56,100 nucleotides of DNA. Origin: Actinomycetes bacterium (GTDB lineage: Bacteria > Actinomycetota > Actinomycetes > Streptosporangiales > Streptosporangiaceae). The stretch lies in contig JAJYTD010000026.1 in assembly GCA_021793235.1 (NCBI GenBank), forward strand, positions 1 to 56,100. Direction: 5' to 3'. The translations under genes were made by a program, and so were the position numbers. Under the pieces are notes generated by a model. The model was not told the origin of the DNA, made no database searches, and was given only the letters and a program-made list of their open reading frames with translations. This document shows, in pieces, positions 16,056-19,094 of this stretch (the stretch's first letter is position 1; the number at the start of each line of letters is the position of its first letter).

Positions 16056-16207
16056 TGGATGCTGGATCCGGCCGCGCGGCGGGCGATGCAGGCCCCGCAC
16101 CAGCAGGCTTCCTGGAGTGGGGCCGGGCGCCCGGACGGCCGACCGGAGGGGCCAGTGGTGCAGCCGGAGCGTGAGGAGGGCTCCCGCGACCGGTGACACC
16201 TTGCCCG

Positions 16208-16231
16208 CAAACCTTAAGACCTTAAGGTTTG
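16208..16231 (+). promoter_or_regulatory. Operator of the Phd/YefM-zeta toxin-antitoxin operon
   Basis: CAAACCTTAA-GACC-TTAAGGTTTG: perfect 10-base arms with a 4-base spacer, ending five bases before the GTG start of the antitoxin. Inside it CCTTAAG also occurs as a direct repeat. Phd/YefM antitoxins bind palindromes at their own promoter, so autoregulation is the natural reading. The close position leaves little room for a leader. Confidence 0.7.
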
Positions 16232-16235
16232 GAGT

Positions 16236-16640
16236 GTGAACGAGAACGCCGCCGAGACCGTCGGAATCGAGCAGGCCCGCAAGGTACTGGGCGAGCTGGT
16301 CAATCAGGTCCGCTACACCGGCCGGCCGATCGTGCTCACCCGGAACGGACGCCCTGCGGCCCGCTTGGCCCCCTTGGAAGGAAGCGACATGCACCCCTTC
16401 GACGCGACCACCCCCGATGCCGTCATCGCCGACGCCGTGCAGGATTCCGCCGCTCTGCTGGCCGCCGCCTACGCCCGCCTGGCCGACCGGGCCGCCACCG
16501 CCGAGGAGGAAGAGGCCGCAATGGCCAAGGTGGAGGCCGCCGGGGCCGTGAGGATGCGCACCGACCTGGACCGTGCGGGGATGATCGCCGAGTACCAGCG
16601 TCTCCAGGCCGAGCTCGACGCCCTGGAGAGCAATGGCTGA
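16236..16640 (+). CDS. Phd/YefM-type antitoxin
   Basis: A 134-residue protein. Residues about 1-50 (VGIEQARKVLGELVNQVRYT, then RPIVLTRNGRPAARLAPLE) form the Phd/YefM DNA-binding domain. The rest is a long acidic helical tail (ATAEEEEAAMAKVEAAG) that should wrap and neutralise the toxin. The stop overlaps the zeta gene start by eight bases, so the two are translationally coupled. GTG 16236 has no properly spaced ribosome site (GGAG is only one base away), so leaderless or inefficient initiation is likely. Zeta is classically paired with epsilon antitoxins, so the Phd/YefM partner is notable. Confidence 0.82.
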   Translation: MNENAAETVGIEQARKVLGELVNQVRYTGRPIVLTRNGRPAARLAPLEGSDMHPFDATTPDAVIADAVQDSAALLAAAYARLADRAATAEEEEAAMAKVEAAGAVRMRTDLDRAGMIAEYQRLQAELDALESNG

Positions 16641-17856
16641 CGAGGTCTCCGAGGAACGCCTGCGGCAGATCTTCGAGAAACGGATCGTGAGGTTCCTCGG
16701 CTTCGCCAATGCCGACCCGGTGCACGGTCGCCCCCCGTTGGTGGTGCTGCTGGGCGGGCAGATGGCCGCCGGCAAGTCCAGCTCGCTGGCCAGGATCATC
16801 GAGCGCCATGGCGGCGCCATCATCCCTGTCTCGCCGGACGACTTCCGCGCCTTCCATCCGGCCTATGAGCACATCATGGCCGAGCGCCCCCACGACCTGG
16901 TGGCGCTGACCTCCCAGGCGATGTACGCCTGGAACGCCATGACCCAGCAGCACGCCCACGAGGCCGGCTACCCCCTGGTCATCGAAGGCACTTTCGGGTA
17001 CGCGCCCGGGGCGCTGGAGATCGTGGACCGCATGACCCGCACCCCCGATTCCGGGCTGCATCCGGGGTTCGAAGCCGAGGTGGCGGCGGTGGCAGTCTCG
17101 GAATACCGCTCCCGTCTTGACATGGTGGGCCGCTACCTGGCCCAGCCGCCGGGGCGGGGCCGCTGGGCGCCGGCCGAGGCCCATGACCGGGTCTATACCG
17201 CGATCCCCCAGACGCTAGAGGCTTTGGAGGCCAATGAGCACGTGCGGCGGGTCGTCATCACCGACCGCTCTGGAGCCGTCCACTACGACAACACCCGCGG
17301 GGACGACGGGCGGTGGGTCCGCCCTCCGGGAGCGGGTGAGGCGCTCAAGCAGGCTCGCGCCGAAGGTCAGGTGCCCTTCGATCAGCAGGAGGCGCGGGAC
17401 TGGCTGGCCGCCTACTGGAGGCAGGCCGAGCACCTCGCCCAGCGCGGGGAAGTCAACGCGATCACCGCTCCGACGATGCTGGCGCTGCACGCCGATGCCG
17501 ACCACATCGCCCCTATCGCCTATGCCGACGACACCGCGGCGTTGGAGGAGCACACGCGCTGGCAGGCGGTTCAAAAGGCGGCGTTCATCGCCGGGCAGCG
17601 CGGGGCCGACAACGCCGCACTGCCGCACACCCCCCGGATCTACTTCCAGTCCTCACGCGCCGAGCGGGATGCGTTCACCGCCGCCATCACCCGGGCCGGA
17701 GAGCACCCGGGACCGATGCAAGTCGACGCGCAGGCCGCCGAGGCCGTGCGCCGTGCCCAGCAGGGCACGGCTCCACCCGGCCAGCGCCCCGCGACCGTCC
17801 GCGACCAGGAGCGCTCCCGCAAGCGGTCGGGGCCGGAATCGGGAATCGAGCGATGA
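16633..17856 (+). CDS. Zeta toxin family protein (UDP-GlcNAc-kinase-type P-loop toxin)
   Basis: The Walker A loop is GGQMAAGKSS (41-50), and SPDDFRAFHP (67-76) holds the acidic substrate-binding residues. The following IEGTFG strand and the arginine-rich helix EYRSRLDMVGRYL match the zeta/PezT kinase fold. Zeta toxins phosphorylate UDP-N-acetylglucosamine and block peptidoglycan synthesis. At 407 residues it is longer than Streptococcus zeta: about 150 extra C-terminal residues end in a basic disordered tail. It lies directly after the antitoxin in one operon. Such pairs stabilise plasmids and integrated elements. Confidence 0.85.
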   Translation: MADEVSEERLRQIFEKRIVRFLGFANADPVHGRPPLVVLLGGQMAAGKSSSLARIIERHGGAIIPVSPDDFRAFHPAYEHIMAERPHDLVALTSQAMYAWNAMTQQHAHEAGYPLVIEGTFGYAPGALEIVDRMTRTPDSGLHPGFEAEVAAVAVSEYRSRLDMVGRYLAQPPGRGRWAPAEAHDRVYTAIPQTLEALEANEHVRRVVITDRSGAVHYDNTRGDDGRWVRPPGAGEALKQARAEGQVPFDQQEARDWLAAYWRQAEHLAQRGEVNAITAPTMLALHADADHIAPIAYADDTAALEEHTRWQAVQKAAFIAGQRGADNAALPHTPRIYFQSSRAERDAFTAAITRAGEHPGPMQVDAQAAEAVRRAQQGTAPPGQRPATVRDQERSRKRSGPESGIER

Positions 17857-17966
17857 GAGGGAAACGAGACTCGATGGTGGGTCCTTTGCTTGACTCTGCT
17901 GCATGGCCAACGAGGGGCAGCAGAGTCTGGATTTCGACGCGATCGCGGCCGAGGAGAGGGATGAGG

Positions 17967-18395
17967 ATGAACGAGCTGGGGCGGATGGCGATGGACCACT
18001 GGCGGGTGGCCCGGCCGATCAGCTATCAGCGGATTCCCGAGGAGGAGCGGGAGAAGTACTTCACGGGCCTGGGGGAGCAGGCCCAGGAGCAGATAGAGAG
18101 CCTGTGGATCCAGTTGGCTGGGGACGACCCGCCGGGCGAGACCGCCCAGCAGAAGCAGGGGCGGCTGAACATGGCGAGACTGCAAGCCAGGGAGCAGGTG
18201 ATGCGGGAGATGATCCTGCTGCCCGAGGATCCGAAGGCGTTCGAGCCGGACGAGCCGAGCTGGCAGGACGTGGAGGAGGCGAACCAGCCGACCGACTCGC
18301 TGGCCGAGTGGATCGCCCAGCAGGATCCGGACAGGCAGGGCCCGGAGGATCCGCAGGAGTGGATGGCCTGGTACAGCAGCCGCAACAACCCCTGA
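17967..18395 (+). CDS. Small mobile-element protein of unknown function (begins MNELGRMAMDHW)
   Basis: A 142-residue soluble, acidic, helical protein. From memory, related actinobacterial plasmid and ICE proteins carry the same MNELGRMAMDHW opening, a GLGEQAQEQIESL helix and an LLPEDP segment, next to DarB-like methylase/helicase genes. ATG 17967 is preceded by AGGA and GAGGAG; ATG 17961 is the alternative. In a different frame just upstream (ATG 17903) lies MANEGQQSLDFDAIAAEERD, which looks like the missing N-terminus of the same family, so the gene may be frameshifted. The function is not known to me. Confidence 0.6.
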   Translation: MNELGRMAMDHWRVARPISYQRIPEEEREKYFTGLGEQAQEQIESLWIQLAGDDPPGETAQQKQGRLNMARLQAREQVMREMILLPEDPKAFEPDEPSWQDVEEANQPTDSLAEWIAQQDPDRQGPEDPQEWMAWYSSRNNP

Positions 18396-19094
18396 CCGGC
18401 CGGTTCACCCCCTCCAGTCAAGGCGACCTGGCGCCCTCGGGGGAACGCAGCCGCATCCACGCCAACCTGCACGTGATCCGGTTGCTGCGCGAGCTGGAAG
18501 AGGCCGGGCGGCCGGCGAATGAGGACAAGCGCGCCCAGCTGGCCCGCTGGTCAGGCTGGGGCGCCGTCCCGAACGTGTTCGACGAGCGCAAGAGCGAGTA
18601 CGCCGCCGAGCGCGCCGAGCTGATGGAGCTGCTCAGCAAGGAGGAGTACGCCGCCGCCCGCCGCAACATCGCCGATGTCGCCGCCGACGGCCGGGTCTAT
18701 GCGGGCGACCTCTACGATACGCTGCACGGTCGCGTCGACGTCCTGGTCCTCAACGCGCCTTATGTCCCCACCGAGGAGATCGGATTGTTGCCCGCCGAGG
18801 CTCGTCTGCACGGACCGCGGGTGGCGCTCGACGGCGGCGCGGACGGGCTCGACGCCCAGCGGCGGGTGAGTGCTGCCGCGCCGCTGTGGCTGGCGCCGGG
18901 CGGCCACCTGACTGATCGAGACGAGCCGGCGCCAGGTGCCGCAGACCGTCGACATCCTCGCCCGTAACGGGTCGGCTCCGCGAGTGGCCGTTTCCGACGA
19001 ACTGGACGCCGCCGTCGTCATCGGTTCGTTAGGCGTGGAGACCCGGGACGGGCCGGCCGTCCCGGGAAACCCGCACACCCCGGTCGTGTGGTGA
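18359..19094 (+). pseudogene. Chimera: N-terminus of a DarB-like methylase/helicase joined to a frameshifted PrmC-like C-terminus
   Basis: The frame opens near GTG 18359, overlapping the previous gene. DLAPSGERSRIHANL, ARWSGWGAVPNVFD and LLSKEEYAAARR are the conserved start of the very large N6-methylase/helicase proteins of actinobacterial plasmids, related to phage P1 DarB. In complete proteins AAARR leads into an STLNAHYT-type motif; here it runs straight into RRNIA and then GRVYAGDLYD, VLNAPYVPTEEIGLLPAEAR and further sequence matching the PrmC-like protein of this window. An inserted A at 18911 shifts the frame; past it LIETSRRQVPQTVDILARNG continues to the stop at 19092. Neither half is functional. 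Confidence 0.8.

What the first reader, a model, noticed from the sequence alone, without database searches (positions are those of the whole stretch)
16208..17856. Zeta toxin paired with a Phd/YefM-type antitoxin, operator flush against the start codon
Zeta toxins are classically neutralised by epsilon. Here the coupled upstream gene encodes a Phd/YefM domain plus an acidic helical tail. A perfect 10-base-arm palindrome ends five bases before the antitoxin GTG and leaves no proper ribosome site, so repression and possibly translation control meet at the start. The zeta protein also carries about 150 extra C-terminal residues. The combination is recorded in annotation of actinobacteria as far as I know, but its neutralisation mechanism is not described to my knowledge.
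Basis: partly seen in the sequence, partly recalled or inferred. Interest (0 to 1): 0.62.

Follow-up and report, generated by a model that had tools for sequence, protein, structure and literature searches.

The report
Zeta toxin with Phd-headed epsilon-like antitoxin
A bacterial poison gene and its antidote: the antidote looks like a patchwork in which a known DNA-binding domain, together with its own DNA switch, has been joined to a small helical protein that in related bacteria sits alone beside the same poison, which suggests that the small helical part, not the known domain, holds the poison in check.

Summary
In detail: a Phd/YefM-headed gene (16236-16640) overlaps a zeta gene (16633-17856), and a perfect palindrome (11-base arms, 16208-16231) abuts the start codon. 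The interpretation needs revising. The antitoxin's C-terminal 83 residues are homologous to stand-alone proteins of 81-94 residues encoded directly before zeta genes elsewhere; 23 of 31 distinct good tail matches from a family-wide search are followed by zeta. The tail is predicted as three helices; its best natural structural match is the C-terminal part of PezA (Z 8.1, weak for a helical bundle). So the neutraliser is most likely an epsilon-like tail, with Phd as a DNA-binding head, apparently gained once. The palindrome recurs before other genes with this head: 4 of 5 occurrences in 338 genomes, and cases on a plasmid, in viral contigs and in an independent homologue. In these nine loci TAAGGT lies 6-7 bases before the start codon, with a -35-like hexamer 16-18 bases further up (0 of 5000 shuffles): a leaderless promoter, which explains the missing ribosome site. 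A bolder reading is an internal start making the tail alone. Toxicity and neutralisation are untested. New variant of epsilon/zeta-PezAT systems.

The parts
16201..16206 (+). -35-like hexamer TTGCCC, 16 bases before TAAGGT
   Evidence: 4 of 6 to TTGACA; same layout in 9 Phd-linked loci, summed matches 40 vs shuffle mean 21.4, 0 of 5000 shuffles; the general promoter scan found none here
16208..16231 (.). operator: perfect inverted repeat, 11-base arms, 2-base spacer
   Evidence: core recurs before Phd-headed genes
16223..16228 (+). inferred -10 element TAAGGT (TANNNT), 7 bases before the GTG; leaderless start
   Evidence: Spacing 6-7 in the 9 Phd-linked loci; TANNNT and leaderless TA mRNAs in M. 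tuberculosis, PMC3898074 passages
16236..16640 (+). antitoxin gene, 134 aa, GTG start: Phd head plus three-helix tail
16254..16379 (+). Phd/YefM DNA-binding head (residues 7-48)
   Evidence: PF02604; alignment A7
16376..16382 (+). candidate internal Shine-Dalgarno GGAAGGA
   Evidence: dG -6.3; 9.5% of 389 in-frame internal ATG/GTG of the window are as good
16389..16637 (+). tail domain (residues 52-134), homologous to stand-alone small antitoxins; also the product expected from internal ATG 16389
   Evidence: Alignment A4, synteny, structure
16633..17856 (+). zeta toxin gene, 407 aa, overlapping the antitoxin by 8 bases
   Evidence: PF06414 E 1.5e-32; 1gvn_D Z 18.5
16753..16779 (+). Walker A GGQMAAGKS (residues 41-49)
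   Evidence: Aligned with zeta 1gvn; G41, K48 invariant in A1
17509..17853 (+). C-terminal extension beyond classical zeta (residues 293-407): helices to about 376, then a low-confidence tail with conserved end

Best explanation
A type II toxin-antitoxin module of the epsilon/zeta-PezAT kind on a chromosomal remnant of a mobile element. Zeta is a P-loop kinase, presumably of a nucleotide-sugar cell-wall precursor (inferred from family). It is neutralised by the C-terminal three-helix domain of the antitoxin, which acts like epsilon by covering the ATP site (inferred). The N-terminal Phd domain is a DNA-binding head that dimerises on the palindrome lying between -35 and -10 and so represses the operon (inferred). 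The head arrived together with its operator. The mRNA is leaderless, starting at or next to the GTG (inferred from conserved spacing). Shown by computation: domain make-up, homology of the tail to stand-alone proteins before zeta, its coupling to zeta, the head-operator association, and the -35/-10/start spacing.
For: Tail of the window matches stand-alone proteins before zeta (phmmer E 1.2e-8 for L009 within a small set of candidate ORFs; alignment A4). Of 31 distinct good tail matches from the family-wide search, 23 lie directly before zeta. Three confident helices (block pLDDT 84-95); best natural structural match PezA residues 70-153, Z 8.1 over 78 residues. Zeta fold Z 18.5 to 1gvn and 16.4 to PezT; K48, D69, E118, R167, R177 invariant in 7 zetas. 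Phd-headed zetas form one clade, support 95/96. Operator: 4 of 5 occurrences in 338 genomes precede a Phd head at 7 bases; further cases L043, L144, L148/L155, L152 and L168, which was not in the head model. -35-like boxes 0 of 5000 shuffles.
Against: No toxicity, binding or transcription data. The tail shows no sequence similarity to one epsilon (hhalign probability 0.1) and Foldseek alone gave nothing below E 1.6; Z 8.1 is within the range seen for unrelated helical bundles. Not every zeta antitoxin is a three-helix bundle over the ATP site: gonococcal epsilon1 binds in an extended form (PMC5923241, passages). 8 of 31 tails have no zeta. The nearest Phd-fused relative, L044, has a head below the Pfam cut-off (19.4 against 29.8 bits), and L014 has a degenerate head without Pfam match and no operator. 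One of 5 palindromes (L104) is not before a Phd gene, and the reversed control pattern occurs in 3 genomes. The window's own -35 matches TTGACA at only 4 of 6 and L044's at 3 of 6; M. tuberculosis start sites showed no conserved -35.
Confidence: 0.75

Rival explanations
1. One reading: the Phd/YefM domain itself, with an accessory acidic tail, neutralises zeta by a mechanism unlike epsilon.
For: The Phd head is present and above cut-off; Phd antitoxins pair with unrelated toxins (PMC6504116, passages).
Against: In many relatives the zeta partner is the tail alone; the same head-operator unit occurs with unrelated C-terminal parts (L106, L107, L043).
Confidence: 0.07
2. The gene makes two proteins: a long repressor-antitoxin from the leaderless mRNA and a short tail-only antitoxin from the internal SD/ATG at 16389.
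For: In 7 of 8 head-tail fusions examined the tail begins with ATG/GTG behind an SD-like sequence, about where stand-alone antitoxins start; 6 of 8 fall in the best 13% of background, and L014, L045, L058, L059 in the best 1-2%.
Against: The window's own site is only in the best 9.5%, L069 12%, L094 22%, and L044 has none; the fusions are related, so they are not independent, and the background is the window alone. The SD may be a relic of the former gene start.
Confidence: 0.3
3. Zeta is not a growth toxin here but a metabolic kinase or a decayed relic kept by chance.
For: Element remnant beside it; the residue equivalent to R120 of zeta (importance recalled, not found in a paper here) is glycine.
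Against: Intact frames, invariant core residues in 7 zetas, preserved overlap and operator.
Confidence: 0.12
4. The palindrome is bound by another regulator, or acts in the mRNA as a hairpin over the start.
For: AAGG at SD distance lies inside the right arm in both window and L044.
Against: It follows the Phd head across hosts and tails, and -35 boxes place it within the promoter.
Confidence: 0.1

Closest known systems
PezAT (Streptococcus pneumoniae)
   Same: Zeta kinase; antitoxin = N-terminal DNA-binding domain fused to a three-helix toxin-binding domain (PMC4803016, passages); tail matches PezA 70-153
   Different: Head is HTH in PezA, Phd/YefM here; no sequence similarity of the tail seen in PDB or Pfam searches
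omega-epsilon-zeta (pSM19035)
   Same: Zeta and a small antitoxin directly upstream; in headless relatives the antitoxin is a small stand-alone protein
   Different: Regulation lies in a separate omega protein there (PMC4803016, passages); here it is fused to the antitoxin
Rv0367c-Rv0366c non-canonical PezAT-like pair
   Same: Actinobacterial zeta-type toxin with a DNA-binding head fused to a proposed epsilon-like C-terminal part (PMC6362051, passages)
   Different: RHH head there, Phd here; toxin there is 197 aa (PMC6504116, passages)
Phd/YefM antitoxins (phd-doc, yefM-yoeB)
   Same: Head domain; Phd represses from an operator (PMC4803016, passages)
   Different: Their C-termini bind Doc or YoeB; this C-terminus is a different family tied to zeta
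Rpn genes-within-genes (PMC10327210, abstract and introduction)
   Same: Small C-terminal protein from an internal start in a TA system, if the internal start here is used
   Different: There the long form is the toxin; here both forms would be antitoxin

Membership tests
epsilon/zeta-PezAT type II TA | Toxin with zeta/PezT fold | tested here: met
   PF06414 E 1.5e-32; 1gvn_D Z 18.5, 2p5t_D Z 16.4. NCBIfam's PezT equivalog model matches far below its cut-off, 48 against 470 bits
epsilon/zeta-PezAT type II TA | Kinase core residues (Walker A Lys, catalytic Asp, Glu, two Arg; roles recalled) | tested here: met
   K48, D69, E118, R167, R177 pair with identical residues of zeta in the alignment (read by eye) and are invariant in 7 sequences
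epsilon/zeta-PezAT type II TA | Antitoxin gene directly upstream, co-transcribed | tested here: met
   8-base overlap; co-transcription itself not tested
epsilon/zeta-PezAT type II TA | Antitoxin recognisable as epsilon/PezA by sequence | tested here: not met
   No such Pfam match in 13 tails; hhalign against one epsilon probability 0.1
epsilon/zeta-PezAT type II TA | Antitoxin three-helix bundle fold | tested here: inconclusive
   Three helices predicted; PezA Z 8.1, but helical bundles reach this by chance
epsilon/zeta-PezAT type II TA | Toxicity and neutralisation by complex formation | not testable with these tools
   Needs bench work
Phd/YefM antitoxin family | N-terminal Phd/YefM domain | tested here: met
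   40 bits vs 29.8; TIGR01552 36.3 vs 20.8
Phd/YefM antitoxin family | Partner toxin of Doc, YoeB/RelE or PIN type bound by the Phd C-terminus | tested here: not met
   Partner is zeta and the C-terminus is a separate family
leaderless actinobacterial TA promoter | TANNNT centred about 7-12 bases upstream of the start codon | tested here: met
   TAAGGT ends 7 bases before the GTG, conserved
leaderless actinobacterial TA promoter | Transcription start at the start codon | not testable with these tools
   Needs start-site mapping

The most novel reading that the evidence does not exclude
One gene encodes two antitoxins: a leaderless, autorepressed mRNA gives the Phd-headed repressor-antitoxin, and an internal Shine-Dalgarno start gives a tail-only antitoxin that cannot repress. 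The ratio of the two would then couple repression to toxin level in a way I know of for no epsilon/zeta system, and the operator-plus-Phd head would be a mobile regulatory cassette that different antitoxins acquire.
Probability: 0.3. Interest if true: 0.68.

Novelty: new variant of a known kind. Interest (0 to 1): 0.5.

Why it matters
It says which part of the antitoxin most likely does what and turns an odd pairing into a rule: zeta partners keep a small helical neutraliser and swap DNA-binding heads (none, HTH, RHH, now Phd). The tail family had no convincing match in Pfam, PHROGs or, by sequence, the PDB, so a number of actinobacterial 'hypothetical proteins' before zeta genes can now be read as likely antitoxins. 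The head travels with its operator, which gives a short DNA tag for predicting operators of other Phd-headed genes.

Tried and rejected
Phd as neutraliser: rejected as best reading because in many relatives the zeta partner lacks it. Operator as translation control: not needed once the leaderless layout was seen. Epsilon homology by sequence: hmmscan, hmmsearch on PDB and hhalign against one epsilon gave no support. Foldseek of the antitoxin: nothing below E 1.6. Phage collection: no match to the antitoxin at E 0.01; plasmids: one, the Phd part only. Zeta profile in viral contigs: 70 stretches matched a pattern, none a relative; in genome contigs 5 of 87. PADLOC: none (one of its three proteins was in a wrong frame). 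A complex of antitoxin and toxin could not be predicted with the single-chain tool. The general sigma-70 scan found no promoter. Searches for prior description of Phd with zeta: (no paper of the library holds both 'zeta toxin' and 'prevent-host-death'; in the other listings I saw none on this pair, but I read only listings and passages, and subscription papers are not held). A search for named zeta residues in PMC3062530 returned nothing. PMC5728571 (passages) describes a mycobacterial zeta-like pair with a ParD-like partner. An earlier script assumed all loci were forward; corrected. The downstream gene was scanned in a wrong frame; corrected.

Full report
WHAT IS THERE. At 16236 a GTG starts a 134-aa protein with a Phd/YefM domain at residues 7-48. 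Its last 8 bases overlap a 407-aa zeta protein (16633-17856; PF06414, E 1.5e-32). A perfect palindrome with 11-base arms and a 2-base spacer fills 16208-16231 and ends 4 bases before the GTG. Its core occurs once in the genome and not in 100 shuffles of the window.

THE TAIL IS A SEPARATE ANTITOXIN. Upstream of the zeta genes of six plasmids (L008-L013) and of L016, L017, L038 and L048 stand small proteins (81-94 residues where annotated or clearly delimited) without a Phd domain. They are homologous to residues 52-134 of the window protein: phmmer E 1.2e-8 for L009 and 1.3e-7 for L016 within a small set of candidate ORFs, alignment A4, with identities to the window of 17-47%. A profile of these 13 tails found matches in 29 of 341 family genomes and in 16 of 394 class genomes, 9 of those 16 being the window's own or family genomes. 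In the loci of the family search, 31 distinct tails of at least 70 aa and E up to 1e-15 remain after removing repeats; 23 are followed directly by zeta, 8 are not (listed), of which one (L092) shows what looks by eye like a decayed zeta. Weaker or shorter matches fare worse: 4 of 15 have zeta in the wider set. Among the 13 tails each of 19 weak Pfam hits touched one or two members (best E 0.0097), each of 5 PHROGs touched one member (best E 0.001), and the PDB profile search gave only coiled-coil chains at E 0.01 and above.

FOLD. AlphaFold2 with six sequences gives three helices, 61-84, 89-106 and 113-133, with block pLDDT mostly 84-95, and a less certain Phd head. Foldseek alone found nothing below E 1.6. 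In the structural realignment of 482 chains the third-ranked chain, after two designed binders, is PezA of PezAT: Z 8.1, 78 residues, model 56-134 on PezA 70-153. PezA's three-helix domain is the part that binds PezT (PMC4803016, passage); that 70-153 is that domain is inferred. The tool warns that helical bundles reach such Z by chance, so this supports but does not prove an epsilon-like fold. hhalign against one epsilon found no similarity. The zeta model matches zeta 1gvn at Z 18.5 over residues 1-292 and PezT at 16.4. K48, D69, E118, R167 and R177 are invariant in 7 zetas and pair with the kinase residues of zeta (the roles are recalled). Beyond 292 come further helices to about 376; the last 31 residues are of very low confidence.

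THE HEAD AND ITS OPERATOR. In 338 family genomes the pattern ACCTTAAG-N1-4-CTTAAGGT occurs at 5 places: the window, Marinactinospora (L105 = L044), L106, L107 and L104; the reversed control pattern occurs in 3 genomes. Four of the 5 end exactly 7 bases before the start codon of a gene with this kind of Phd head; L104 does not. L106 and L107 have different C-terminal parts. Demanding a start codon at 7 bases, 374 class genomes gave only the window and Marinactinospora, and the control pattern 1 genome. Of 52 viral contigs with the pattern, 4 (3 distinct: L144, L148/L155, L152) have such a Phd gene 6-7 bases on; 15 share one other conserved stretch, 2 have other reading frames, and the rest have no frame of 45 aa starting 4-11 bases on. 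A Streptomyces plasmid gene found by protein similarity (L043) has it too. A head profile of 8 rows (A7) was then run on 338 genomes and matched in 229. Of its 30 best loci the top five carry the CTTAAG palindrome; four of these were rows of the model, the fifth, L168, was not. The other 25 do not show it in the bases printed, though for 4 of them the script found no start codon. So the motif follows this branch of heads, not the tail. Two cautions: the Marinactinospora head scores below Pfam's cut-off (19.4 against 29.8 bits), and some of the nine loci are related (L107 and L152 share the C-terminal part).

LEADERLESS PROMOTER. In the nine Phd-linked loci TAAGGT, the right arm of the palindrome, ends 6-7 bases before the start codon. 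A -35-like hexamer stands 16-18 bases upstream of it (TTGACA in two, TTGCCC in the window, only 3 of 6 in L044 and L148). The summed match is 40, against a shuffle mean of 21.4, with 0 of 5000 shuffles as high. In Mycobacterium tuberculosis TANNNT is centred 7-12 bases before 73% of primary start sites, without a conserved -35, and 32 of 37 toxin-antitoxin pairs with a primary start site are leaderless (PMC3898074, passages). The window therefore needs no ribosome site before the GTG, and the operator sits where a repressor would block polymerase. The standard promoter scan missed it, as TAAGGT is far from TATAAT.

HISTORY. A maximum-likelihood tree of 26 zetas groups the three with Phd-headed antitoxins (window, L014, L015=L044) in one clade, 95/96, nested among lineages without a Phd head; one gain is consistent with this, not proven. 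L014's head is degenerate (no Pfam match) and has no such palindrome. A second head type of about 170 aa is fused to the tail in L045, L058, L059, L069 and L094; the two of these five that I scanned had no credible Pfam match. PezA was postulated to have arisen by fusing a repressor to epsilon (PMC4803016, passage); the mycobacterial relative has an RHH head (PMC6362051, passages). Gonococcal epsilon1 shows that zeta antitoxins may also bind in an extended form (PMC5923241, passages).

INTERNAL START. In 7 of the 8 head-tail fusions examined the tail starts with ATG or GTG behind an SD-like sequence. Energies are -9.0 to -9.5 for L014, L045, L058 and L059 (best 1-2% of 389 in-frame internal starts of the window), -6.3 for the window (9.5%), -5.9 for L069 (12%), -4.7 for L094 (22%); L044 has none. 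L106 (-6.4) and L043 (-9.3), which carry the head with other C-terminal parts, also have one. This is suggestive, from related sequences and against one background, and could be a relic of the former gene start.

CONTEXT. After zeta come a TnpV-like gene (below cut-off; 69% similar DNA lies on a Thermobifida halotolerans plasmid) and the start of a helicase-like gene (name recalled; a homologue lies just after zeta in L045) that runs into sequence similar to a glutamine methyltransferase gene: the module sits on an element remnant.

VERDICT. Ordinary in kind, new in make-up: an epsilon-like antitoxin with a Phd head and a head-specific operator in a leaderless promoter. Function is inferred throughout.

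Noticed in passing
window 17961-18720: TnpV-like gene followed by a helicase-like N-terminal fragment that continues in frame into glutamine methyltransferase-like sequence: a rearrangement junction at about 18660-18720 and an element remnant.
   Followed up: partly
window 17764-17853 and A6 rows: The zeta proteins end in a low-confidence Pro/Arg-rich stretch whose very last residues (about G-x-E-R) are kept in most close relatives; possibly a degron, partner site or export signal.
   Followed up: no
L045, L058, L059, L069, L094: A second, about 170-residue head is fused to the same antitoxin tail; its first 50 residues look Phd-like by eye.
   Followed up: partly
L058, L062, L065, L067, L069, L092, L093, L096: Antitoxin tails with no zeta directly downstream; L092 seems to have a decayed zeta.
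   Followed up: partly
L106, L107, L043, L152: The same operator and Phd head precede unrelated C-terminal domains; I noticed no toxin gene beside them but did not search for one. Possibly stand-alone regulators or unknown antitoxins.
   Followed up: partly
Viral contigs, e.g. L110, L113: Fifteen viral contigs share one conserved stretch that contains the palindrome core, by coincidence or for another reason.
   Followed up: no
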